Source: Candidatus Gastranaerophilales bacterium
Lineage (GTDB): Bacteria; Cyanobacteriota; Vampirovibrionia; Gastranaerophilales; Gastranaerophilaceae
Length of the DNA: 64,000 nt
Assembly (NCBI GenBank): GCA_944323255.1
Contig: CALURU010000003.1
Coordinates: forward strand, 1 to 64,000
Reading direction: 5' to 3'
In this document: piece after piece, positions 1 to 42,272 of the stretch
How the letters are laid out: every line of letters begins with the position of its first letter
Numbering within the stretch: position 1 is the stretch's first letter
Notes under the pieces: generated by a model
Databases searched by the model: none
What the model saw: only the letters and a program-made list of their open reading frames with translations
Told to the model about the DNA's origin: nothing
Made by a program: the position numbers and the translations under genes

Positions 1-41
1 ATCTACAAGCTTGCCATTATTATGCTAAGATTGATAATAAT

Positions 42-2927
42 TTAGGATTTCACAAAAAACTGTTTCAAATACTGACCTGTATATGAATTTGGATTCTTAG
101 CAACCTCCTGAGGAGTTCCGCAGGCAACAACTTCACCGCCGGCATCTCCGCCTTCCGGCCCCAGATCAATTATGTAATCAGCAACTTTTATCAAATCAAG
201 ATTGTGTTCTATAATCAAAATCGTATTTCCGTTATCCGCAAGCTGCTGGATAATTTTAATTAACTTATCCAGATCATGCCAGTGAAGCCCGACAGACGGC
301 TCGTCAAGAAGATAGAGTGTTTTTCCGGTAGCACGTTTGTTTAATTCGGACGCAAGTTTAATCCTTTGTGCCTCACCGCCTGATAGTGTTGTCGCACTCT
401 GACCAAGTTTAATATAATCCAAACCCACATCGTTTAAGGTTTTGAGCTTATTTGCAATTTGCGGAATATTTTCGAAAAACTCGTAAGCCTCTTTAACACT
501 CATCTCCAGAACGTCGGAAATTGTCTTGCCTTTGTATTTAACCTCAAGAGTTTCATTGTTGTAGCGCTTACCCTTGCAGACATCACATTTGACATATACG
601 TCCGACAGGAAATTCATCTCGATTTTCAAAACACCGTCGCCTGCGCAGGCTTCGCATCTGCCGCCTTTTACGTTAAAGCTAAACCTTCCCGGCTTATAAC
701 CTCTCATTTTTGCTTCGTTCGTTTTAGCATAAAGTTCTCTAATCGGTGTAAACACATCCGTATAAGTTGCAGGGTTTGAGCGAGGAGTTCTGCCAATCGG
801 TGATTGGTCAATATCAATAATCTTATCCAGATGCTCAAACCCGAGAATTTCATCCACACCCTGCGGTTTCGGTCTGTTTTTTCTAAGCTTATGAACGGCG
901 TATTCATAAATTAATTCCTGCATAAGCGTTGATTTTCCGGAGCCGGAAACACCTGTCAGGACTACAATTTTACCAAGCGGAATATCAAGGTCAACGTTCT
1001 TCAAATTATTCTTAAACGCATTTCTTATCTGGAGATAATTCCCGTTGCCTTCACGAACTTTTTTCGGGATCGGAATATTATACTCGCCGCTCAAATATTT
1101 TCCGGTAATAGAGTCTTTTGCTTTAATAATATCCTCAACAGTGCCCAGTGCAATGACTTCACCGCCGTTAACACCTGCTTTCGGTCCGATATCAACAATA
1201 TAATCCGCATTTCTTATTGTTTCTTCGTCATGTTCAACAACAATTAGCGAATTTCCCATATTTCTGAGTTTTAAAAGCGTCTTAATAAGCCTGTCATTAT
1301 CTCTCTGGTGCAAACCAATTGAAGGCTCGTCCAAAACATACAACACACCTGAAAGTCCGCTTCCAATTTGAGTTGCAAGCCGTATTCTCTGCGCTTCACC
1401 GCCTGATAGTGTTCCGGAGGTGCGTGCAAGGTTCAGGTAATTCAAACCTACATCGCACAAGAATTTCAACCTTGCACGCACCTCATCCAGAATTTGTTTA
1501 CCAATTTTCATCTGAAAATCAGAAAGCGTAAGATAAAGTTCGCTCACAAATTCGTACGCTTTATCCACCGGCATAAGACAAAATTCATAAATATTCAGCC
1601 CTCGGGTAGTGCCATACTCTCCCGCCCCTTGAGGGAGGGGGTTGGGGGGTGGGGTATTACCTATGCGCACGGCAAGCGGAAACGGTTTAAGCCTTGCGCC
1701 GCCGCATTTTTCGCACGGAGTCGTCACCATGTACTTTTCAATCTCGGCTTTCCAGTATTCGCTGTCAACGTTATAATGCTTCATCAAAAACGGAATTACA
1801 CCGATAAAGCGCTGAAGAGAAGTTCTGTATCTATGACTTCCGAACTCCTTAATCCTCATCGGAATTCTCTCGTCAGAGCCATAGAGAATAATATTTTGAT
1901 GCTCTTCCGGCAAGTCTTTGAACGGAATATCAAAATCTATTTTATAAGCAGTCTTTACAGCAGACAAAACATCTTCGTAATAAGAAGTTGAAGATTTACT
2001 CCAAGGGTAAATTGCCCCTTCGTTTATTGATTTATTTCTATCAGGGATAACTAAATCCGGATCGATTTTGAAATCCACACCGATACCGCCGCACTCATCG
2101 CACGCCCCGTACGGCGCATTAAAAGAAAAGATTCTCGGCGTCAGCTCTTCAAAACTCAAATTACAATCCGGGCATGCGAGTTTTTCGCTGTAAATTATTT
2201 CTTCACCGCCGATTACATCAATCGTTGTAACTCCGTCCGCTTTTTTTAGTGCAATTTGTACGCTGTCTGCAATTCTTGAGCGAGCTTCCGGCTTTACGAC
2301 AACACGATCGATTACAACCGAAATCGTATGCGCTTTTGTTTTGGCTAGCTTAATTTCATCCTCATCAAGGTTGTAAATCTCGCCATCTACTTTGACACGA
2401 ACAAAACCTTCCTGTCGTAATTCTTCAAAAAGTGATTGAAACTCACCTTTTTTGCCTTTCGCAATCGGTGCTAAAATCTGGATTTTTGTACCAGTCTCAA
2501 GTTTAAGAATACTTGATACAATCTCATCAATTGTTTGCGGCTTAATCGGTTTTCCGCATTTTGGGCAATAAGGCGTGCCGATTCTTGCATAAAGCAGCCT
2601 CAGGTAGTCATAGATTTCCGTAACCGTACCGACCGTTGAACGGGGATTATTGCTGGTAGACTTCTGATCAATGGAAATAGCAGGCGTAAGCCCGTCAATA
2701 TAATCCACATCCGGCTTATCCATCTGCCCCAGAAACTGGCGTGCATAAGTTGAAAGGCTTTCTATATATCTTCTCTGCCCTTCCGCAAAAATAGTATCAA
2801 ACGCAAGTGAGCTTTTCCCGGAGCCAGAAACACCCGTAAATACTACAAGCTCGTTTTTGGGGATTTCCAGCGAAACATTTTTGAGGTTATGTTCCCTCGC
2901 TCCTTTTACAACGATTTTATCACTCAT
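42..2927 (-). CDS. uvrA: Excinuclease ABC subunit A
   Basis: UvrA is the DNA-damage-sensing ATPase of nucleotide excision repair and works with UvrB and UvrC in the cytoplasm. The 961-aa protein is close to the usual ~940. Two ABC modules are visible: Walker [11 protein letters not shown] near residue 33 and [10 protein letters not shown] near 650, each with an LSGGEAQRI signature. Zinc-type Cys pairs ([24 protein letters not shown]) are present. One oddity is a Pro/Gly-rich stretch of about 18 residues near residues 422-442, encoded by a G+C-rich palindrome at about 1603-1660. It interrupts the region after the CEKCGGARL motif and looks like an in-frame repeat insertion. The ATG at 2927 lies 6 nt behind an extended -10 box, so the message is probably leaderless. 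No other nucleotide excision repair gene is nearby. Confidence 0.97.
1603..1660. repeat. G+C-rich palindromic repeat inserted inside uvrA
   Basis: The segment contains CCCGCCCCTTGAGGGAGGGG followed by a G-rich tail. It is compositionally unlike the flanking A+T-rich codons. It resembles the CCCCCTCAAGGGGGG-type repeats at 37801-38012 and 59517-59533. It encodes residues such as [15 protein letters not shown], which I do not expect in UvrA. The boundaries are approximate. Confidence 0.7.
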
Positions 2928-2933
2928 ACCAGA

Positions 2934-2942
2934 ATTATATCA
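2934..2942 (-). promoter_or_regulatory. Extended -10 promoter of uvrA
   Basis: On the minus strand this reads TGATATAAT, with only 6 nt to the uvrA ATG. Transcription would begin at or next to the start codon, and there is no Shine-Dalgarno sequence in between. Confidence 0.6.
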
Positions 2943-2968
2943 CCAATAAAATTAAAGGACTAATCAAG

Positions 2969-3141
2969 GGTTTGGGGATTTATATTGCAGTTTACACTAA
3001 AAAAGCTAAAATTGTCACCCTGAACTTGTTTCAGGGTCTTACCACCGGCAAGATTCCGAAACAAGTTCGGAATGACATTATAAATATATTATTTCAAGCA
3101 TATTTTGTGCAAAGTTGTATATAAGTCACTTGGTTTTGGGA
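2969..3141. repeat. Miniature inverted-repeat element, copy 1, with flanking direct repeats
   Basis: About 153 bp (2979-3131) matches copies at 42113-42260 and 47837-47981. It carries a 19-nt stem (3022-3040 with 3050-3068) around the loop ACCACCGGC. The outer ends are imperfect inverted repeats: GATTTATATTGCAGTTTACAC against the complement of the right end, about 15 of 21 matching. The flanks GGTTTGGGGA (2969) and GGTTTTGGGA (3132) look like a target duplication with one mismatch. It fills most of the gap between uvrA and the prepilin operon terminator. Confidence 0.85.
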
Positions 3142-3162
3142 GTTATTAAATTGGTAAGAAAT

Positions 3163-3185
3163 AAAGGCGCCCTGCGGGCGCCTTT
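3163..3185 (-). terminator. Rho-independent terminator of the prepilin operon
   Basis: A perfect 10-bp stem, AAAGGCGCCC / GGGCGCCTTT with a 3-nt loop, is followed on the minus strand by TTTATTTCTTA. It sits about 43 bp after the last prepilin stop codon. Confidence 0.85.
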
Positions 3186-3227
3186 ACAAACCTTAAAACC
3201 TAAAAATCTCAACAGAATCTACAGACC

Positions 3228-4277
3228 TTATCTATATTCATCGAGGAACACATAGCATGATTCCAGATCCTCATTAGAACAATTAAATGGTGCAGAGCTT
3301 TCGATTGCGAGCGGTTCTAGGTCGGTTGTGAAATTCGGGAAGTCCTTCAGGATATCGCTTGTAGGGTCTATAAGACTCCTTACGGCATCATTCATGGAGA
3401 ACGGCTCGTCAGGATTAAAGTCAAGCGGCTGCGGGTCAGAGCCGGTAGTATTGTAGTAGCCCCATGCTGCGCCTTTAGCCTGATAATAAGGCAGAGAGCG
3501 TTTTGTATACAGCGGGTCACCGTCTTCTGTATAATAGATGAACCTTGCTGTTAGGACGTTTGTATCGTATTCAGCAATTCCAAGAGGCATGACTCTACTG
3601 TTGTCCAGCATTGCAAACGCAAAAATATCAGGTTCAATTCTGTCTTTAGCTTCCTGCTTGATATCATCAGGATCAGTCATGTTGTAGTCACCGATTTCTT
3701 TTCCGCCCTTATAAGTATAGACGAGAGAATTTGGTTTATTCAAGCCGTTTACATCAACAAAAACTAGATAGAATTTAATATTTTCAGCCTCTGCGCCGGC
3801 ACCTACAGTACCTTGTATCAGATTAGAGATATAAAAGATCATGCCGTTTGTAGCGATAAATTGAACTCTATCGTCACGGTGGACTAATTCATCATCAACT
3901 TCTTCCATAAAATCTTCAGGTTTTGCAACCTGCGGAGTTATTTTGGTAGAAGAACAAGTTGAAGCATAGTCATGATCAGCAGTTCTTTCATTATCTTTCG
4001 TGTTAATAAAAGTAGTTAACCCCTGACAGAGAATTTCAGCTCCTGTATCTTCTGCTTCCGAGTGGACAGGGCTGTCCTCTTCCGTAAACGGATCATAACC
4101 TTGCAGAAGTCCGTTGTAGAAGGCTCTTGAGAGCGCTGAATAAGCGTTCATGTACTGGTATTTAAGAGCGGATTTTTCAGCGGGCTTCATGGTAGTAACG
4201 GCGAGAGCCGTTACAATACCGATGATAGCGAGTGCCATAAGCACTTCTGCAAGCGTAAATCCAAGCAATTTTTTCAT
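3228..4277 (-). CDS. Type IV prepilin-like protein (fifth of cluster)
   Basis: This is a predicted secreted or pilus-associated protein of about 349 aa. The N-terminus MKKLLGFTLAEVLMALAI is a class III prepilin signal: cleavage after Gly, Phe+1 and Glu+5, then a hydrophobic helix. The large C-terminal ectodomain has no recognised fold and contains several Cys. I chose the ATG at 4277, six bases behind GGGAG, over an upstream in-frame TTG at 4289. It is the last gene of a five-gene prepilin operon, 15 nt after its neighbour and before a strong terminator. No pilus ATPase, platform protein or peptidase is in the window, so the machine must be encoded elsewhere. Whether it is a minor pilin of a type IV or a type II-like system cannot be decided. 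Confidence 0.85.
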   Translation of the reverse strand: MKKLLGFTLAEVLMALAIIGIVTALAVTTMKPAEKSALKYQYMNAYSALSRAFYNGLLQGYDPFTEEDSPVHSEAEDTGAEILCQGLTTFINTKDNERTADHDYASTCSSTKITPQVAKPEDFMEEVDDELVHRDDRVQFIATNGMIFYISNLIQGTVGAGAEAENIKFYLVFVDVNGLNKPNSLVYTYKGGKEIGDYNMTDPDDIKQEAKDRIEPDIFAFAMLDNSRVMPLGIAEYDTNVLTARFIYYTEDGDPLYTKRSLPYYQAKGAAWGYYNTTGSDPQPLDFNPDEPFSMNDAVRSLIDPTSDILKDFPNFTTDLEPLAIESSAPFNCSNEDLESCYVFLDEYR

Positions 4278-32101: not shown

Positions 32102-33166
32102 TTATTTATCAAATTTACCTCTTAACAACACTTGAATAAGCGCTATTGCAGAAAACGGAACGCCTACAAAAAATTGCTCAATTTTAACCCGCAATGACGC
32201 TTCCGGGTCAAACAACTTATACAAATGTTTGTAAAACCTCAAGAGTTTGTAATTTGAGCTAATACTTGCAGAGGCTGGAATATAAGCGGAGTCGCAATAT
32301 TTTTCATAAAGTTCTTCAAACTTATGGAAAGTGTACAATTCGAGGTAAATATCGCCCGCAAACGGTTCATATTTGCTAAAAAGGTATTTCAGATTATGAA
32401 TTCCCGATTGCTTGTACTCTAAGAAAATAAAGTTATTAGCAAGACAAAGTCGTGATTTTTCGTTAATTTCGTCTGACAAATCCGCACAGTCCCGCATTTT
32501 TATATCATCAAAATACTTGTTGAAACACGAATAGCAGATGAACTGCTCCGGCGCAAATCTCCAGTCGAATTTTTCGAACGCTGATTTTTTAGCAGCGTTT
32601 TCAGGATATTCAAAGTAATTGGAGAAATACGGTTCTTCAACTGTAGTGGAAGAAAGCAGGTATTTTTTTATATCTTCCGTAAGCCCGAAGAACCACCAGT
32701 CTGAAACGTGGAACGGGATTTCAATTCCGTTTATGACGGTTTTGGAGAAAAGAGTGGAAGCGAGGATTCTCTGTTCAAAGAGCTTATATTTTTCGACTCT
32801 TTCGGGAAATTTTTCAAAAACATTCAAAAATTCTGTATTATCGATGCAGGAATCCGTTCGCAGCTTTAGAGTATATTTACGGCTTACTTTTTCAACTCCG
32901 CAGTTAGTTGAGACAATCATTCGATTGAGGTTATTAAATACTTTTTTGGAGGCAAACCCTTTTTGCCTGACGGCTCCGGGGTCTTTGCTGACAACGAGGA
33001 TGTCATAATCCAGATTGTCAGTGCGGCTTCCTTCCCACGTAGAGAGGATAATTTCAGCCTCCGGAAGGTATTTGCGGATGCTTTTGAGGCATTTTTTGGT
33101 TTTTACTTTGTGAATCGGACCTTGCACAACGACCGAAATATCTTTAGATTCTATTTTTTTCTGCAT
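32102..33166 (-). CDS. WavE-family surface-glycan protein, copy 2
   Basis: The 354-aa protein matches the WavE lipopolysaccharide-synthesis pattern. ISVVVQGPIHKVKTKKCLKSI leads, LPEAEIILSTWEG and DYDILVVSKDPGA follow, and NNLNRMIVSTNCGVEKVSRKY and LKLRTDS come next. The likely role is a glycosyltransferase-type step in surface polysaccharide. It is a paralogue of the upstream gene, which it overlaps by 16 nt, implying tandem duplication. The ATG at 33166 follows AAGGAG. Last gene of the glycan operon. Confidence 0.85.
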   Translation of the reverse strand: MQKKIESKDISVVVQGPIHKVKTKKCLKSIRKYLPEAEIILSTWEGSRTDNLDYDILVVSKDPGAVRQKGFASKKVFNNLNRMIVSTNCGVEKVSRKYTLKLRTDSCIDNTEFLNVFEKFPERVEKYKLFEQRILASTLFSKTVINGIEIPFHVSDWWFFGLTEDIKKYLLSSTTVEEPYFSNYFEYPENAAKKSAFEKFDWRFAPEQFICYSCFNKYFDDIKMRDCADLSDEINEKSRLCLANNFIFLEYKQSGIHNLKYLFSKYEPFAGDIYLELYTFHKFEELYEKYCDSAYIPASASISSNYKLLRFYKHLYKLFDPEASLRVKIEQFFVGVPFSAIALIQVLLRGKFDK

Positions 33167-34227
33167 AACAACTCCTTAATCAGTGCAGATAAAAATAAGT
33201 AAAAATAAAACACAACTGAAAAAAATTCAGCAAATTTTTTTGCAAGTCTTCCATACAATAAGCGGAAAAAATGTTTTCTTAATGCATCATAATATTGTAT
33301 ATTATACATTTTTTTTGTAAATTCACCTTCTTTAATAATGGCAGAAATATTACAATATTTTTTATAATCATGTAACTGTTCTATTTTTGAATAATATACA
33401 AAAGGGCTATTGATATACATTTTTATATCCTTGTATTCTTTTTTGAGTGTCGAAATTCCCCACTCTTTTTGAGAAAATACTCTGAAATTATTTATAATAA
33501 AATCTTCTGAAATCCCTACATTTTCGGGAGTTATGTCAAGGTAGTTATCGAATTTAAGGTTCTTGAAAACTTTTGCTGCATTAGAAGAGGTAAAATACTG
33601 TTCCGGTGACATTTTCCAGAGCCTTGTTTGATGAATATCATTTTCAGACTTAGGTTGGTTTTCAAAATACCTTGAGAAATCGGGTTCTTTGACTTGCGGG
33701 AGGTTAAAAAACTCCTGCAAATCTTCTTTAAGCCCAAAATAACACCAGTCGGAAATGTGGAAGAGCATTCGTTGCCGGATGCGTTTTTTTGTATCATATT
33801 TGATTGAAAAAATCTCATAAGCAAAAATTCTTTGGCGGAAGAGCGAAGCGGCGGGGTTTCTTTCCGGCAAATCGTCTTTTAGTTTAAGGATATTGTCGTT
33901 TTTTAATTCGAGGTCACTGCGGAGCCTGAGAACGTATTTGCGTGAAGCTTTTGCGATACCGTTTTTACTGGAGACAAGAATCCTGTTGAGATTGTTTAAT
34001 CTTTTGTCACTGTCATCGAAAATCACCGCCGACGGGTCTTTGTTAAGAACGGCAATGTCATAGAGCCCTTCAAGCCCATCGAGCTTAGCGCCTTCCCAGC
34101 TTGAGAGTATAATCTCTGCATCTGGCAGAAACTTACGGATGCTCTTCAGACATCTGCGTGTAATTCCATATTCAATTGCACCCTGAATAATAACAGAAAT
34201 GCTATTACTATTTAGTTTTCTCACCAC
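33151..34227 (-). CDS. WavE-family surface-glycan protein, copy 1
   Basis: The 358-aa paralogue of the next gene has ISVIIQGAIEYGITRRCLKSI, LPDAEIILSSWEGAKLDG, NNLNRILVSSKNGIAKASRKY and LRLRSDLE. A hydrophobic segment near the C-terminus (FFSVVFYFYLFLSALI) may anchor it to the membrane. The start is GTG at 34227, overlapping the previous gene's stop by 7 nt. Confidence 0.83.
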   Translation of the reverse strand: MVRKLNSNSISVIIQGAIEYGITRRCLKSIRKFLPDAEIILSSWEGAKLDGLEGLYDIAVLNKDPSAVIFDDSDKRLNNLNRILVSSKNGIAKASRKYVLRLRSDLELKNDNILKLKDDLPERNPAASLFRQRIFAYEIFSIKYDTKKRIRQRMLFHISDWCYFGLKEDLQEFFNLPQVKEPDFSRYFENQPKSENDIHQTRLWKMSPEQYFTSSNAAKVFKNLKFDNYLDITPENVGISEDFIINNFRVFSQKEWGISTLKKEYKDIKMYINSPFVYYSKIEQLHDYKKYCNISAIIKEGEFTKKMYNIQYYDALRKHFFRLLYGRLAKKFAEFFSVVFYFYLFLSALIKELLCRKK

Positions 34228-35298: not shown

Positions 35299-37047
35299 TT
35301 ATGAGGTTACAATATTAAAATGCTTTACAATTCTATTATTAGGGTATGCAAAATACTTAATAAGCTTTTCTCTGTAATTTCTCCTAATACGCTTTATAGG
35401 GATAAACAAAGTACATAATTTACTAAGAGTACGTATACTCTTTACATAATAACTATTATGGTAGGCTTTCCAATACTCTCCTTCATACCTTTTTTCAAGA
35501 AACATGTGACATAAATATCTATCATAATATTCACACCAATGATATTTATCTTCCAAATTATATTTTTGAATAAAATAAACAAAATACTCTTCTAACTTGT
35601 TATTTCTATTACATAAAATACAAGCCCACATAATAATACGATATACCATGTATGATTTATCTATGCCATTTCTAAGCTCAAATTCGTAATCAAAAAAATG
35701 ATATTTCATATTAGGTAGTTTTAAACAATTTTCTGCAGTACAATCAAATGCGATTGATTTCAAAAATTTACAGTTTTGGTTAAATTGTAATAAAACTTCT
35801 CCTATAAAAATTTCTAATTCATTTAAAAATTTTTCTTCACTTGTTTGGTTTTGCAGTATACTTAAAATATTTGCCCCTGCTTCAAAGTTTAAAAATTGTT
35901 CTTTATAATGCAATTTCAAATCTAACCATTCTGGAGCCGGTATTGTTTCTCTTGTATCAACATATACTCTATTTGAATCTTTAAGTGTTAAAACTAAGTC
36001 ACAATCTGGGTTATTATATTTTGTACCCAGTATTTTCCTTTTTATTATTAGTTTATCTTTTTCCAATTCAAATTTAGTACATACAAGAGCACAATATCTA
36101 TCTATACAAATAATTCCTAATGTATTTTTCTTAAATCTGCATATTATATCTTTAAAATATTTTTCATAACTTGTAAAGTTATAATCTTCAAAATGAAAAT
36201 CGTAATTTTTAATATCTTCTTTAGGTAAAAATTTATTCATATACCCTATAACTAATTCCGGATATTTAAATACTAATTCTTTCCTAATTGTTAAAGATCT
36301 ATCACTTGTTCTAAAATGTAAATAATCTGTTTGTAAGTTTTTATCTACGCCCAAAATCAGGTTATTTTTGTTGATACTATAATAATTACTCGCAAAAATA
36401 AAAGGTCTAAATGTTTTTTGATATGGTATAAAAACATAATTAATTTCAGTTGAAAAAGCAAAATCCTTTAAAAAATCATTATAACTATTAGGCAAGTATT
36501 TCGCCCAATGTAGAGTCTCTTCTCTTGTTGCAAGAACTCCTAACAAGATTTTACACTTTTTAGATAATTCTTTCATAATGGATATTGCATAATTATATCC
36601 ATAACCTTTATAATAAGTGACCTCTTCTTGACATAAATGATGAATTACACTAAATAAAAAAATAAAATCGTATTCATCATCTTGAATATTTTTGACAAAA
36701 TCATAATCTAAAAATTCTTTTCTAAAATCTACTGAAAATTTATTTTCCCTATTTAGATATTTACATATAGCAATATTTTTTTCTTCCAGATCAATGCCGA
36801 CAACTTTACAGCCTAATTCCGCAGCTTTTAGAGAATAATAGCCCTGTGCACAACCAATATCCAGCACTTTAATTGTAGTTTTTCCTGTCAGTTTTTTATA
36901 TTGATTTATTATATCTGCAATTTTTTCACCATTTTTTATGGTATCAATTCCTAGTACTGTCTCATCATATTCCGGATGCCCGTATATATTTTGATATTGA
37001 CAGGGTAAATCCGATATTAATGTCTCTATATGTACTGTATTTTGCAT
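35299..37047 (-). CDS. SAM-dependent methyltransferase with large C-terminal domain
   Basis: The 582-aa protein has a class I methyltransferase domain near residues 50-190: VLDIGCAQGYYSLKAAELG, VVGIDLEE, then DDEYDFIFLFSVIHHL. The C-terminal ~350 residues are unassigned and include AFDCTAENCLKLPNMKYHFFDYEFEL, reminiscent of sugar-kinase-like or chain-terminator proteins such as WbdD, which fuse a methyltransferase to a kinase. The HxD kinase motif is not evident. It is very A+T-rich. It probably modifies or caps a surface glycan. Confidence 0.7.
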   Translation of the reverse strand: MQNTVHIETLISDLPCQYQNIYGHPEYDETVLGIDTIKNGEKIADIINQYKKLTGKTTIKVLDIGCAQGYYSLKAAELGCKVVGIDLEEKNIAICKYLNRENKFSVDFRKEFLDYDFVKNIQDDEYDFIFLFSVIHHLCQEEVTYYKGYGYNYAISIMKELSKKCKILLGVLATREETLHWAKYLPNSYNDFLKDFAFSTEINYVFIPYQKTFRPFIFASNYYSINKNNLILGVDKNLQTDYLHFRTSDRSLTIRKELVFKYPELVIGYMNKFLPKEDIKNYDFHFEDYNFTSYEKYFKDIICRFKKNTLGIICIDRYCALVCTKFELEKDKLIIKRKILGTKYNNPDCDLVLTLKDSNRVYVDTRETIPAPEWLDLKLHYKEQFLNFEAGANILSILQNQTSEEKFLNELEIFIGEVLLQFNQNCKFLKSIAFDCTAENCLKLPNMKYHFFDYEFELRNGIDKSYMVYRIIMWACILCNRNNKLEEYFVYFIQKYNLEDKYHWCEYYDRYLCHMFLEKRYEGEYWKAYHNSYYVKSIRTLSKLCTLFIPIKRIRRNYREKLIKYFAYPNNRIVKHFNIVTS

Positions 37048-37377: not shown

Positions 37378-37755
37378 TTACCTCTCCTTTGCTTGTTTCA
37401 ATACTTGTTCTTTATCCATTTTTTCCCAGCCATCGAATTTTATCACCCTGTCGTCTATCGTGATATCAGCATTCGGCTTGCCGAAGAAAATCTCATCATA
37501 CTGGATGCCGTTCGCCTCCAGCCAGTCAAGAGTGATTTTACCCACATTCTTCATAACCTTACCCACGTTATGCCCCTGTGTCTGCATATTGCGGGCGGTA
37601 TTGATAATTATCGTATGCCCGTCCGCTTTCAAGCTGTCTATAAACTCCTTCGCCCCCGGCATGACTTTTACATCCGCATAACTCTCGTCAGGCTTCTTTA
37701 TCGTGCATATCGTTCCGTCTAAGTCAATACATATTCTGAGCTTTTTGTCTTCCAT
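37378..37755 (-). CDS. HAD-family phosphatase of capsule type
   Basis: The ~125-aa protein starts MEDKKLRICIDLDGTICTI, where DLDGT is HAD motif I. It continues with IINTARNMQTQGHNVGKVM (motif II area), GKPNADITIDDRVIKFDGW (motifs III/IV; DD). Small HADs of this kind sit in Campylobacter-type capsule loci. I chose the ATG at 37755 (behind AAAGGAC) rather than an upstream start at 37824 that would read into the G+C-rich tandem repeat. Confidence 0.82.
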   Translation of the reverse strand: MEDKKLRICIDLDGTICTIKKPDESYADVKVMPGAKEFIDSLKADGHTIIINTARNMQTQGHNVGKVMKNVGKITLDWLEANGIQYDEIFFGKPNADITIDDRVIKFDGWEKMDKEQVLKQAKER

Positions 37756-37800
37756 TCGTCTGTCCTTTTCTTTATCGTTTAATTCTTTATTCAATTTACT

Positions 37801-38012
37801 CCCCCCCCTTCGGTCTCCGACCACTTCCCCCTCAAGGGGGGCAGGTGCGGGACTTGTTTACTGGTTTTTCTTACCCCCCTTTCCCCTTCGGGTACTTCCC
37901 CCTCAAGGGGGGCAGGTGCGGGACTTGTTTACTGGTTTTTTCTTACCCCCCTTTCCCCTTCGGGTACTTCCCCCTCAAGGGGGGGGCAGGTGCGGGACTT
38001 GTTTACTTGTTT
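37801..38012. repeat. Three tandem G+C-rich palindromic repeat units
   Basis: Three units of 71-74 bp share CTTCCCCCTCAAGGGGGG then GCAGGTGCGGGACTTGTTTA. The GCAGG landmark recurs at 37841, 37912 and 37986. Units 2 and 3 are almost identical; unit 1 is diverged at its left end. A related palindrome lies inside coaBC (59500-59540) and a looser one inside uvrA. It fills the gap between the kinase-fusion gene and the HAD gene. Confidence 0.88.
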
Positions 38013-39703
38013 CATTCCCTCCGACTCACCGCCACCAGAGTTTTGCCCTCCGAAACTCCCGCCGACAAAGCTTTCTTCCCCCGTTCGATACTCAAGTTCA
38101 AAAGCTCCACCGCCTTCAGATAAAAAATCTTCTGTCTGCTGAAATTGTCCTTGTGCAGCGGAATCATTGAAAGAAACAACAATCCTTCTATAAACTTTAT
38201 TTCCTGTGGATTATAACCGTTTAATGCCGCATATTTATCGAAAATTCTCTCTAGTATTGAGTAATCCGCAGAAGTCTTAATTTCGTATTCAAAGCCTGTT
38301 TTATCCTCTTTTAGCTTGAAAAGTCCATGAACAATAAAATCATAAAGTCCCGCAACACTATGACGAAGTTTTGCAATATCATATCTCGGATCACCATATA
38401 TTGTCGGTTCAGCATTTAACCTCCCTCTCGGATCTATCAATTTGAAACAATAATTACTTGAATCAAAAAGGATATTTGAAAAACAGTAATCGCCATGAAT
38501 AATGGTTTCTGTTCCAGTTTTGCAGAGCTCTTGAACACAAATATCAATACCGTCTTTTAAAGAGGCAACTCCTCTGTATTTTTTGCCATTTATATATTCA
38601 AATTCTCGGTCTAAAACTTTGTTCCAGTAAGGATTTTGTTTTCTTAAATCCCCTAATCGCTCTTTTGTTTTATCGTAATAAAGCCATTTGAGTGCGTTTG
38701 GATTAGTTTCTGAAGTATAGTTTTCAAATTTCTTATGCAGATTGAACAGCAATTTGATAATATAATTCCAGTCCTCAAGATTAACCTCGCCGGACAAATA
38801 CAGTTCCTGCAAAGACGGATAGCCGTATAATTCCTGCGTTAAACTTGCAGAAGAATTATCTTTATTGAAACTTACAAATCTCGGCGTGAAAATTTTTAAA
38901 TCATCAGGCAGGTTAAGATACCAGAGGGCTTCATCTTCAAGTTTCTGAACTTTTGTACTGGTTTTGGTAAGTAGCCCGCATTCTGTATCAACAGATATTG
39001 AATTGAAACATCTGGCATTAAAAAGCATGTTTTTGGCTTTAATTAATCCCGATGTATGCCCCAAATCGTACCAGTCATCAATGAGTTTTGTTTTAAGTTT
39101 GTGTTTTTCCTGATACATAATCAGAGCAGTCGAAATCTCTTTTTTTAGCATTAATCTTGCCTTCACACAGCAATTCAGAAGATATTTTGTATCCGAAAAA
39201 GCGTAATATCCAACAAGTGCCTCTTTATCTGCAATGTCAATATTTTTCTCTTTGTCATAAAAATGTCCGTTTTTATCAACAAGGCACCAGTTATCAGACG
39301 TAGTAATATCTTTTGAAGTAAAAATTACATCTTGAGCGTCATCAATACTTTTAGGAATCATTGTGTCACCAAGCAGAACTCTTGTCGGCAAATTCGGATC
39401 AGCCTTTTTAAGAGCGTATTTTAATGAACTTAAAATATTCTTTTTACTGTTAACTTGAACAAGTGTTATTTCAAACTTTTCGCTTAAGATACTTTTTATA
39501 TAATCCAGAAGTTTATAATTATCATTGCAGACAACAATAATAAATTTATTCAATCCGTATGACTCTTTGAGGTTTTCAAGCTGTCTTAAAATAACAGATT
39601 TACCTCTCAGAGGCAAAAGTGCCAGAGAAGAATAAAACCCTACCGGCATGTTTTCGTTTTTAGTTTCTCCTCCAAACAGGAGGATATTGTTAAATTCTTG
39701 CAC
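38012..39703 (-). CDS. Nucleotidyltransferase-like / small-molecule kinase fusion
   Basis: The 563-aa two-domain protein has an N-terminal half with an NTP-transferase-like fold: LALLPLRGKSVILRQLENL, then TRVLLGDTMI at the metal-site position. The C-terminal half is an aminoglycoside/choline-kinase-like domain: GTETIIHGDYCFSNILFD (HxD...N catalytic loop) and FKLIDPRGRL (metal site, DPR instead of DFG). The start is GTG 39703 behind AGGAGG. With the nucleotidyltransferase and HAD next to it, this forms a pathway to an activated phospho-group for surface glycan decoration; the substrate is unknown. Confidence 0.8.
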   Translation of the reverse strand: MQEFNNILLFGGETKNENMPVGFYSSLALLPLRGKSVILRQLENLKESYGLNKFIIVVCNDNYKLLDYIKSILSEKFEITLVQVNSKKNILSSLKYALKKADPNLPTRVLLGDTMIPKSIDDAQDVIFTSKDITTSDNWCLVDKNGHFYDKEKNIDIADKEALVGYYAFSDTKYLLNCCVKARLMLKKEISTALIMYQEKHKLKTKLIDDWYDLGHTSGLIKAKNMLFNARCFNSISVDTECGLLTKTSTKVQKLEDEALWYLNLPDDLKIFTPRFVSFNKDNSSASLTQELYGYPSLQELYLSGEVNLEDWNYIIKLLFNLHKKFENYTSETNPNALKWLYYDKTKERLGDLRKQNPYWNKVLDREFEYINGKKYRGVASLKDGIDICVQELCKTGTETIIHGDYCFSNILFDSSNYCFKLIDPRGRLNAEPTIYGDPRYDIAKLRHSVAGLYDFIVHGLFKLKEDKTGFEYEIKTSADYSILERIFDKYAALNGYNPQEIKFIEGLLFLSMIPLHKDNFSRQKIFYLKAVELLNLSIERGKKALSAGVSEGKTLVAVSRRE

Positions 39704-40460
39704 AATTTCCTCCTTTTAAATATTCCTGAAGCTGCTCTGGTGTCCCGACGCAGTCAAAATGAGCAATATCATAAATCCCGATTTTATCTTTAGTTTTTCT
39801 CAGGTGATTATAGACATTTGACATGTAAAACTCGCCTTTCTGTATGTCGCTTTCTACAACCAGATCAATCACCGCATCTTTAAAATCTTCCAAATTTTTA
39901 AAATAATACATGCCGCAAATGGCATGGTCTGAAATAACCTCTTTTTCCCTTGTTTCTATTAAGAGACCTTTGTCATCGGCTTTTGCGTAAGAAAAACAAG
40001 GATTAGAGGATTTAAAGGTCAACAGGGCACCGCTTAAATCTCTGCTTCTTACAGATGTTACAAATTTAAAAACATCTTCATCGTTAAAAATATTATCCGA
40101 ATCGGCAAAAATAATATCGTATTTGAAATTTATTGCCTTATGTGCCGCAAGGGCAGTAATCGCAGCCCCCATAGTGAGTTTTGGAACAGTTACAATAGTT
40201 ATTTTGTATTTTTCCTGTAATTTCTCAACCTGATTTTTTTGTTCTGAAAGAAACTTTTCCTGCATTATCAATGTAAAAACGGCATTTATGCGTTTGAATG
40301 AGGCTAAAACGTGCTCAATCATCATTTTCCCGTCGAATTCAATAAACGGCTTTGGGACATCATATCCCGCAACGGCAAAGCGGCTTCCTGCACCTGCCAT
40401 AGGAATAACAACATTTATTGGATTATCTAAAGAATTATAATTAATACTAAAAACTTCCAT
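39690..40460 (-). CDS. Nucleotidyltransferase for surface glycan precursor
   Basis: The ~256-aa protein begins near MEVFSINYNSLDNPINVVIP, followed by MAGAGSRFAVAGYDVPKPF, the glycine-rich NTP motif with its basic residue, then FADSDNIF (metal-binding Asp) and GTPEQLQEYLK at the end. This is the sugar-phosphate/phospho-small-molecule nucleotidyltransferase family. The start ATG at 40460 lies 5 nt behind AAGGAGAG; an upstream in-frame ATG at 40484 would overlap the recombinase-like gene and lacks a good site. It overlaps the following fusion gene by 14 nt. Confidence 0.85.
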   Translation of the reverse strand: MEVFSINYNSLDNPINVVIPMAGAGSRFAVAGYDVPKPFIEFDGKMMIEHVLASFKRINAVFTLIMQEKFLSEQKNQVEKLQEKYKITIVTVPKLTMGAAITALAAHKAINFKYDIIFADSDNIFNDEDVFKFVTSVRSRDLSGALLTFKSSNPCFSYAKADDKGLLIETREKEVISDHAICGMYYFKNLEDFKDAVIDLVVESDIQKGEFYMSNVYNHLRKTKDKIGIYDIAHFDCVGTPEQLQEYLKGGNCARI

Positions 40461-40470
40461 TAAACTCTCC

Positions 40471-41001
40471 TTATAAAACAACACCTTCTCTGTATCTCAA
40501 ATTCATATTCTCGTCTACATCAATAAACTTGAGAGCCAGTTTTATATTTGTCTGATTAAATAACCACTGCAGATAAGATAAATCTTTGTACTTCATGTAA
40601 TAGTGATAGGCAAATGTCTTTCTCCAGGATGCAACAGAATACTTATTACTTAGCCCGAGTTCGGAGCAAACATTCTTAAATGCATAAAATACTGCTGTTC
40701 TGTGCAATTTTTCGCCATTAGAATTACTAAACAAATAGCTGCAAAGTTTTTGTCCGGAAATTACCTCTCTAATTAATTCAAGAATTTCATCATTCAATGG
40801 AACTGTCTTATTTTTCCCGATAGTCAAATATAACTTGTCTTTTACATCTTTAACTCTTAGATTAAGCAGGTCTATCAGATCCATTCCCGTATTAATAGCA
40901 AGCGTAAACATAAGGAGTTCACTCATTTGATTTTTCCTCCTGTACAAATCCTTTATAGATTCTATTTCCGCTTTATTTTTTATCGGTAAACTGATGCCCA
41001 C
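40471..41001 (-). CDS. Degenerate tyrosine recombinase, probably catalytically dead
   Basis: The 176-aa protein is homologous over its length to the recombinase at 41274-41816 and keeps the fold (LLMFTLAINTGMDLIDLLNL; VASWRKTFAYHYYMKYKDLSY). The catalytic residues are changed. The first Arg is Asp (GMDLIDLL against GLRISDIL), the HxxR His is lost (VASWRKT against THTLRKT), the later His is Gln (FNQTN against FNHCS) and the nucleophile Tyr is Phe (KFIDV against RYIGI). The frame is intact, which argues for retained function, for example DNA binding without cleavage. The start is GTG 41001 with a weak ribosome site. It directly precedes the glycan operon. Confidence 0.8.
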   Translation of the reverse strand: MGISLPIKNKAEIESIKDLYRRKNQMSELLMFTLAINTGMDLIDLLNLRVKDVKDKLYLTIGKNKTVPLNDEILELIREVISGQKLCSYLFSNSNGEKLHRTAVFYAFKNVCSELGLSNKYSVASWRKTFAYHYYMKYKDLSYLQWLFNQTNIKLALKFIDVDENMNLRYREGVVL

Positions 41002-41140
41002 TGCCGCCTGACTACTTTCCGAGAAAAACCTGACCTTTTCAAAAGACCCTTGATCTCTACATAATTACAAAATTGTTGAAGTATTAAATCTTGCTATTAA
41101 TACCGGTTTTTCATTGATTAATTTAAAAAATTGCGAAATA

Positions 41141-41246
41141 AATTCAACATAATGTTTTACAATTATATTGAATATTTTTACTTTGTGATATAATTATTAC
41201 AAAGTTTTTAAAGAACAATTCAACACAATTGTAATTATGTTGAATT
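41141..41246. repeat. 13-bp inverted repeat flanking a possible promoter
   Basis: AATTCAACATAAT (41141-41153) and its exact complement ATTATGTTGAATT (41234-41246) are 80 bp apart. An ATTGAA...TATAAT pair (41167-41194) lies between. Inversion would turn the promoter toward the dead recombinase and the glycan operon. Confidence 0.55.
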
Positions 41247-41254
41247 GTTTTTTT
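41216..41254 (+). terminator. Rho-independent terminator
   Basis: CAATTCAACA pairs with TGTTGAATTG (10 bp) and is followed by seven T. It could also end the convergent recombinase message less efficiently. Confidence 0.75.
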
Positions 41255-41273
41255 GTTGAATTATTGCTTAAGA

Positions 41274-41816
41274 TTACAGTACAAAATTATTGTAGCTTTC
41301 ATCAATCATATCTTGATCTATGCCAATATAACGGAGTGTAACCTGAGGAGAGCAATGATTAAAAATCTTCTGCAAAACCGCAACGTCTTTAAATTTTTGA
41401 TAATGGTGATATCCAAAAGTTTTTCTTAAAGTATGCGTTCCAATTTTATAATCAATTCCGGCTTTTCTGCAAGCAGTATTTACAATTCTGTAACACTGCG
41501 TACGTTCCATTCGATTATTAAAAACAGACAAAAATAACGGTTCATCGATATTACGATTCTGCGTAAATTTTGCAAACATTGGCTTCAGCTTTGAATTAAT
41601 CGGAAAACGTTTGTATTTTCCGGTTTTCTTTTCTGTAATACTTATGTAATCTTTGTTTCTAACATCAGAAACATTAAGATTTAAAATATCCGAGATTCTC
41701 AAACCGCAATTTGTACCGACAGTAAAAAGCAACAAATCACGCAAACTCTGTTTTCTTAAAATATTTTCTATTTTTTGTAAATCACTTTTCTTTCTTATTG
41801 GCTCAACAATATTCAT
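41274..41816 (-). CDS. Short tyrosine recombinase, catalytic residues intact
   Basis: The 180-aa site-specific recombinase is reduced almost to the catalytic domain. Catalytic residues are visible: Arg in TNCGLRISDILNL, Lys in TEKKTGKYKRF, HTLRKTFGYHHY (HxxR), His in FNHCSPQVTL and Tyr in RYIGID. It lacks the usual N-terminal core-binding domain, like other ~180-aa integrase-family proteins that act on inverted repeats or small elements. The ribosome site is AGGAGAAATAGT. It may act on the inverted repeats just downstream; that is inference. Confidence 0.88.
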   Translation of the reverse strand: MNIVEPIRKKSDLQKIENILRKQSLRDLLLFTVGTNCGLRISDILNLNVSDVRNKDYISITEKKTGKYKRFPINSKLKPMFAKFTQNRNIDEPLFLSVFNNRMERTQCYRIVNTACRKAGIDYKIGTHTLRKTFGYHHYQKFKDVAVLQKIFNHCSPQVTLRYIGIDQDMIDESYNNFVL

Positions 41817-42117: not shown

Positions 42118-42272
42118 ATGTCGCAGTTTACACTAAAAAAGCTAAAATTGACACCCTGAACTAATTTCGGAATCTTACCACCGGCAAGATTCCGAAATTA
42201 GTTCTAAATGACATTATAAATATATTTCAAGCATATTTTGTGTAAAGTTGTATATAAGTCCCGTAAAAAAGA
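42101..42272. repeat. Miniature inverted-repeat element, copy 2, with flanking direct repeats
   Basis: About 148 bp (42113-42260) matches the copies at 2979 and 47837. Its hairpin is perfect over 19 bp (42158-42176 with 42186-42204). The stem sequence GAACTAATTTCGG differs from copy 1 on both arms. The flanks CTGTAAAAAAGG (42101) and CCGTAAAAAAGA (42261) look like a target duplication. Confidence 0.88.

What the first reader, a model, noticed from the sequence alone, without database searches (positions are those of the whole stretch)
40471..41816. Catalytically dead paralogue beside an intact short tyrosine recombinase
The gene at 40471-41001 keeps the fold and frame but has replaced Arg, both His and the Tyr nucleophile (to Asp, Ser/absent, Gln and Phe). 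The neighbour at 41274-41816 has all of them. An intact frame after losing every catalytic residue suggests selection for a DNA-binding or regulatory function, for example a directionality factor or operon regulator. It directly precedes the glycan operon.
Basis: partly seen in the sequence, partly recalled or inferred. Interest (0 to 1): 0.62.

Follow-up and report, generated by a model that had tools for sequence, protein, structure and literature searches.

The report
Dead recombinase heads invertible-promoter glycan operon
A gut cyanobacterial relative appears to switch a surface-sugar operon on and off by flipping its promoter with a small recombinase, and the operon's first gene is a recombinase copy that has lost its cutting chemistry but is kept by selection, probably as a regulator of the switch or of the operon.

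Summary
The gene at 40471-41001 (minus strand) is a short tyrosine recombinase that has lost R-I (D41), the beta-hairpin Lys, H-II (A124), H-III (Q150) and Tyr (F159). It keeps R-II (R127), so not every catalytic residue is gone. Its neighbour at 41274-41816 is intact. It is not a decaying gene: it belongs to one clade (40 sequences, 100/100 support) confined to one Gastranaerophilales family. All 40 lack H-II and none has the full catalytic set; all 53 active paralogues are intact; dN/dS is 0.03-0.16.

The 272-bp gap holds a 188-bp invertible promoter (41056-41243) bounded by inverted repeats. Such repeats lie upstream of about 30 of 38 dead-type genes. The inner segment runs in opposite directions at five or six pairs of related loci. 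The repeats track the active recombinase, not the dead one. The dead gene is the first gene of a co-directional surface-polysaccharide operon at nearly every locus.

So this is a fim-like phase switch on capsule-type operons, with an added pseudo-recombinase in the position that UpxY/UpxZ hold in Bacteroides. The switch is well supported. What the dead protein does (ON-state feedback on inversion, or operon regulation) is inferred. Dead-less switches show that it is accessory.

The parts
41274..41816 (-). intact 180-aa tyrosine recombinase, catalytic domain only (R40, K64/K67, H128, R131, H154, Y163); presumed invertase
   Evidence: 53/53 paralogues keep all residues; inverted-repeat sequence tracks this protein
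41056..41243 (.). 188-bp invertible element (putative phase switch) between the two recombinase genes
   Evidence: inverted repeats above all 100 shuffles; opposite orientation of the equivalent segment between related loci
41219..41243 (-). inverted repeat / crossover site next to the active gene (TCAACATAATTACAATTGTGTTGAA on the minus strand)
   Evidence: the two arms are the only genome matches with up to 3 mismatches
41056..41080 (+). inverted repeat / crossover site next to the dead gene (TCTACATAATTACAAAATTGTTGAA)
41182..41194 (+). extended -10-like motif TTTGTGATATAAT, pointing away from the operon: OFF orientation in this assembly (moderate confidence; a competing sigma-70-like match at 41189-41162 points to the operon)
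   Evidence: motif in 19 of 36 loci against 0.8 expected from shuffles; orientation
41141..41173 (+). extra site-like sequence inside the element, just upstream of the extended -10 motif
   Evidence: sequence; repeats D14, I7 and I10
40471..41001 (-). catalytically dead recombinase paralogue (D41, A124, R127 kept, Q150, F159); first gene of the operon
39690..40460 (-). sugar nucleotidyltransferase-like gene (start taken at ATG 40460 behind AAGGAGAG)
38012..39703 (-). gene with NTP-transferase plus choline-kinase/APH-like relatives (same protein cluster as L067 and L070)
37378..37824 (-). HAD-like hydrolase
35299..37047 (-). methyltransferase-domain protein
32102..34227 (-). two WavE-type LPS synthesis genes at the far end of the operon

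Best explanation
The locus is a phase-variable surface-glycan operon. The intact recombinase (41274-41816) inverts the promoter-bearing 41056-41243 segment by recombination between its inverted repeats, connecting or disconnecting the promoter from the operon that starts with the dead paralogue. The dead paralogue would therefore be made only in the ON phase, as the operon's first product. I propose that it is a non-catalytic regulator that keeps the recombinase DNA-binding/assembly fold. Most likely it joins or competes with the active recombinase at the crossover sites, forming non-productive complexes that bias or stabilise the ON state (feedback). Shown: loss of catalytic residues by sequence, purifying selection, repeats, orientation differences between related loci, operon position, and repeats tracking the active enzyme. 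Inferred: that the AT-rich motif is the promoter, that the neighbour is the invertase, ON-only expression, and the dead protein's molecular role.
For: Inverted repeats upstream of 20/24 dead genes beat all 100 shuffles each; of 170 control upstream regions only one lying outside the switch regions themselves scored similarly. The prediction was repeated in 13 independent new loci, 9 with repeats scoring 39 or more, plus L077. Inverted orientation between related loci: L048 vs L049/L069, L050 vs L066, L042 vs L043/L064, L041 vs L074, L072 vs L106, and probably L107 vs L074; the L048/L049 inverted block spans exactly the repeats. Two contigs of genome G080 both stop at the same crossover site, with the inner segment in neither. 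Repeats correlate with the active recombinase (Mantel r 0.36, p 0.0006), while active and dead do not co-vary (r 0.06). Loci lacking a local active gene have a matching-type one elsewhere in the genome (L072/L077, L073/L080). The dead gene is first in co-directional glycan operons. dN/dS 0.03-0.16. Dead clade 100/100. Dead proteins stay basic, median pI 9.3; R-II invariant.
Against: No within-species pair of orientations was seen; one genome per species was available. In the window a competing promoter-like match points toward the operon, so OFF is not certain. The repeats are imperfect here (20/25 identical). If the dead protein read the crossover sites its sequence should track them; the correlation is weak (r 0.20, p 0.03) next to that of the active enzyme. 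Switch-like loci in genomes without any dead gene (G004, G002) show that it is not needed for switching. No binding or expression data exist.
Confidence: 0.62

Rival explanations
1. The switch is as described, but the dead protein is a transcription-level regulator (operon activator, antiterminator or cross-locus repressor), the functional counterpart of UpxY/UpxZ, which are often the first genes of Bacteroides capsule operons under invertible promoters. It does not touch inversion.
For: Always first gene of the operon, including loci without a local active recombinase; dead and active genes reassort freely and repeats do not track the dead protein; several genomes carry two dead-headed operons, where cross-locus control would make sense. 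The Bacteroides arrangement is described in PMC12632263.
Against: It is a recombinase fold, with no NusG/UpxY-like domain; no leader motif shared by the whole clade was seen by eye upstream of the dead genes.
Confidence: 0.3
2. The dead gene is a relic: a former invertase duplicate decaying at the head of the operon.
For: Catalytic residues are lost stepwise (Tyr kept in 19/40, H-III in 4/40, R-I in 2/40).
Against: dN/dS 0.03-0.16; open frames in essentially all copies across about 12 genera; invariant clade-specific residues such as W146 and R169; basic charge kept.
Confidence: 0.02
3. The dead-type protein still recombines DNA with an unusual active site, alone or as one half of a heteromer in which the active paralogue supplies the chemistry.
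For: R-II is invariant in 40/40, and Tyr is kept in about half of the clade; heteromeric tyrosine recombinases (XerCD) are known.
Against: The window protein lacks R-I, the hairpin Lys, both His and Tyr; related proteins switch between Tyr and Phe (L073 vs the window protein), so Tyr is not under constraint.
Confidence: 0.06
4. The inverted repeats are terminators or regulator-binding palindromes, not crossover sites, and the orientation differences are chance or assembly artefacts.
For: Repeats near gene ends are common; the genomes are MAGs; each arm is itself partly palindromic.
Against: Arms lie about 70-300 bp apart and are often perfect over 29-34 nt; several pairs of related loci are flipped between the arms; the sequence changes with the recombinase type.
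Confidence: 0.05

Closest known systems
E. coli fim switch (fimB-fimE-fimS-fimA)
   Same: Short recombinase gene directly upstream of an invertible promoter segment that faces a surface-structure operon; inverted-repeat crossover sites; the 3' end of the recombinase gene abuts the switch (fim details: PMC9993118).
   Different: In fim both paralogues are active and lie upstream; here the second paralogue lacks the catalytic residues, lies downstream as first gene of the switched operon, and the operon makes glycans. The element is 188 bp with 25-nt arms against 314 bp with 9-bp repeats.
Bacteroides capsule loci (Mpi-controlled invertible promoters with UpxY/UpxZ)
   Same: Several polysaccharide operons under invertible promoters, a trans-acting invertase plausible for loci without a local one, and a locus-encoded regulator as first gene (PMC12632263).
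   Different: A tyrosine recombinase instead of the serine invertase Mpi (from general knowledge); the first gene is a dead recombinase, not a NusG-like antiterminator.
phrog_216-type short integrases of phages and plasmids
   Same: The active protein is a close match of this family (E 5.8e-60) and the dead protein a weaker one (3.2e-29).
   Different: Here they are chromosomal and tied to invertible promoters; no relative over 60% identical to the dead protein was found in phages or plasmids.

Membership tests
Tyrosine recombinase (PF00589) | Catalytic-domain fold | tested here: met
   Pfam E 2.6e-16; AF2 model matches XerA, Cre and Tn1549 Int
Tyrosine recombinase (PF00589) | Catalytic residues R, K, H, R, H, Y in the dead protein | tested here: not met
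   Only R-II kept; D41, A124, Q150, F159, hairpin Lys absent
Tyrosine recombinase (PF00589) | Catalytic residues in the neighbour 41274-41816 | tested here: met
   All present, as in 53/53 paralogues
Invertible promoter (inverton) phase switch | Inverted repeats flanking a promoter-sized segment | tested here: met
Invertible promoter (inverton) phase switch | Segment found in both orientations | tested here: met
   Between related loci of different species; contig ends at the site in G080. Not shown for the window locus itself nor within one species
Invertible promoter (inverton) phase switch | Promoter activity depends on orientation | not testable with these tools
   Only a recurrent extended -10-like motif
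FimB/FimE-type DNA invertase | NCBIfam tyrosine-type DNA invertase models above cut-off | tested here: not met
   NF007371 43.5 bits (cut-off 222) and NF007370 35.9 bits (cut-off 221) for the active protein; none listed for the dead one
Recombination directionality factor | Biases the direction of recombination | not testable with these tools
   No assay; crossover sites track the active enzyme, not the dead one
UpxY/UpxZ capsule-operon regulators | First gene of an invertible-promoter capsule operon | tested here: met
   Position met
UpxY/UpxZ capsule-operon regulators | NusG-like (UpxY) protein family | tested here: not met
   Only PF00589 found

The most novel reading that the evidence does not exclude
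A family-wide class of pseudo-recombinases, evolved from an invertase, that is produced only from the ON orientation and feeds back on the inversion of its own and sister glycan-operon promoters: a catalytically dead paralogue as a built-in memory element of a DNA switch.
Probability: 0.4. Interest if true: 0.82.

Novelty: new variant of a known kind. Interest (0 to 1): 0.66.

Why it matters
It adds a non-photosynthetic cyanobacterial gut lineage to the bacteria with promoter-inversion control of surface glycans; I found no paper on this in the library searched. It also gives a clean natural case of an enzyme family splitting into an active invertase and a conserved dead paralogue placed inside the circuit that the invertase controls. 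Shared half-sites with locus-private spacers suggest how one recombinase could serve several switches without scrambling them. The role of the pseudo-recombinase is directly testable by reconstitution in E. coli.

Tried and rejected
Decaying pseudogene: rejected by dN/dS and clade-wide open frames. Rfam element in the gap: none. Clade-wide leader motif upstream of the dead gene: none seen by eye; a CTTTCTCRGAAAG-like palindrome occurs in some window-type relatives only. Generic promoter/terminator scan of the gap: hits no better than shuffles. Dead type outside the family: not found in 286 order-level and 194 class-level genomes at the clade's score level; only ordinary-identity relatives in phages, plasmids and viral contigs. 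Literature: no paper on Gastranaerophilales invertons or on dead tyrosine recombinases in invertons found; subscription journals are largely not held.

Full report
OBSERVATION. The two ORFs are real and both lie on the minus strand: intact recombinase 41274-41816, then a 272-bp gap, then the dead paralogue 40471-41001, then a co-directional operon. Both are PF00589 proteins consisting of the catalytic domain only. In the dead protein R-I is Asp41, H-II is Ala124, H-III is Gln150, Tyr is Phe159, and the beta2-beta3 hairpin carrying the catalytic Lys is shortened; R-II (Arg127) is kept. The AF2 model (pLDDT 86.5, pTM 0.82) matches XerA, Cre and Tn1549 integrase.

SELECTION AND DISTRIBUTION. Relatives are Gastranaerophilales MAGs. 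A profile of dead-type proteins separates them (196 bits or more for full-length copies) from active ones (157 bits or less) in the order. All dead-type hits fall in one family and about 12 genera; none lie elsewhere in the order or class samples. A 93-sequence tree puts all 40 dead sequences on one side of a 100/100 branch and 53 active ones on the other. All 53 active proteins have R, K, K, H, R, H, Y. None of the 40 dead ones has the full set: H-II is lost in 40/40, R-I in 38/40, H-III in 36/40, Tyr in 21/40, while R-II is kept in 40/40. Pairwise dN/dS where dS is not saturated is 0.03-0.16, close to the 0.03-0.06 of the active paralogues. The clade has its own invariant residues, e.g. W146, Q150 (in the 24-sequence set) and R169. 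This is a conserved non-catalytic protein, not debris.

THE MISSED FEATURE: AN INVERTIBLE PROMOTER. The gap contains inverted arms 41056-41080 and 41219-41243 (20/25 identical), found nowhere else in the genome with up to 3 mismatches. Upstream of 24 dead genes, 20 have arms that beat all 100 dinucleotide shuffles; many are perfect over 29-34 nt. Of 170 control upstream regions, the only strong scores were three that share a dead gene's own upstream region and one other. The prediction held in 9 of 13 new independent loci and in L077. Between related loci the inner segment is flipped: L048 vs L049 and L069, L050 vs L066, L042 vs L043/L064, L041 vs L074, L072 vs L106, and probably L107 vs L074. 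For L048/L049 the flipped block runs exactly from arm to arm. Two contigs of genome G080 both terminate at the same crossover site, with the inner segment in neither, as expected if both orientations were present (an inference, since short-read assemblies can break for other reasons). A recurrent extended -10-like motif TTTRTGNTAWWAT lies inside the segments (19 of 36 loci against 0.8 in shuffles), facing the operon in some loci and away from it in others. In the window it faces away (OFF), though a competing sigma-70-like match faces the operon.

WHO FLIPS IT. Among 16 loci with a neighbouring active gene, arm similarity follows active-recombinase similarity (Mantel r 0.36, p 0.0006; partial 0.35) better than dead-protein similarity (r 0.20, p 0.03; partial 0.19). 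Active and dead proteins do not co-vary (r 0.06). L070 is telling: its dead protein is 84% identical to the window's, but its active protein and arms are of the L041 type. Loci with no adjacent active gene have a matching-type one elsewhere in the genome: L072 with L077 and L073 with L080. Within one genome, loci share half-sites but differ in the spacer (G090: L072 vs L077; G080). For a tyrosine recombinase, where spacers must match, this would let one enzyme serve several switches without crossing between them (mechanism from general knowledge).

WHAT IS SWITCHED. The dead gene is the first gene of a tightly packed co-directional run in nearly every locus. The run encodes sugar nucleotidyltransferases, glycosyltransferases, sugar aminotransferase and dehydratase, UDP-galactopyranose mutase, undecaprenyl-type sugar transferase, capsule synthesis protein, TupA-type ATP-grasp and WavE proteins. 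Exceptions are L040 (radical SAM and acyltransferase first), L047 (a transposon module inserted) and L063 (a displaced copy without the usual upstream region).

WHAT THE DEAD PROTEIN DOES. Position implies ON-phase production. It stays basic (median pI 9.3 against 9.7 for the active) and keeps R-II, consistent with retained DNA binding. Its C-terminal tail is conserved but differs from the active one, consistent with altered protein contacts. My preferred model is ON-state feedback through non-productive assembly with the active recombinase. The main rival is an UpxY/UpxZ-like operon or cross-locus regulator: in Bacteroides those genes are often first in invertible-promoter capsule operons (PMC12632263). 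Genomes with inverted-repeat switches but no dead gene (G004/L033, G002/L024) show that it is accessory. The fim comparison (PMC9993118) fits the geometry: a recombinase gene upstream, a promoter-bearing element, and the surface operon downstream. Neither route is proven here.

VERDICT. Observation confirmed; interpretation partly supported and extended. The invertible promoter is a known kind of system in a lineage where I found no earlier report. The conserved dead paralogue as operon leader is, to my knowledge and in the literature that I could search, a new variant.

Noticed in passing
window 37823-38012: GC-rich 71-bp tandem repeat (2.6 copies, 95% match) inside the glycan operon, between the NTP-transferase/APH-like gene and the HAD-like gene.
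   Followed up: no
window 42158-42204: Strong hairpin (22-nt arms, 95% complementary, 3-nt loop) between the dCMP-deaminase-like gene and the active recombinase gene.
   Followed up: no
L070 1360-4838, L074 about 33-3543, L021, L047 6565-9428: TniA-like (Mu-transpos_C/rve), TniB-like and a 222-aa ORF lie directly upstream of an active recombinase (L070, L074; L021 partial), or TniA/TniB lie downstream of the dead gene (L047): Tn402/Tn7-like modules next to these switches, a possible vehicle for the observed reassortment of active and dead genes.
   Followed up: partly
L074 upstream of 6001; L050 and L048 upstream regions: More than two site-like sequences and a second, reversed extended -10 motif upstream of the dead gene: possible multi-site switches.
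   Followed up: partly
G080 contigs C26 (end) and C30 (start), loci L065/L129/L131: Two contigs stop exactly at the same crossover site, with the inner segment missing from both, as if both orientations were present in the sequenced population.
   Followed up: partly
L033, L024, L021, L027, L026: Active recombinases of the same family beside inverted repeats with no dead gene; in L026 the repeats flank the recombinase gene itself.
   Followed up: partly
L111, L112, L113, L114: Dead-type proteins that still carry His-III (FGH/FNH) while lacking R-I and H-II: intermediate states of catalytic loss.
   Followed up: no
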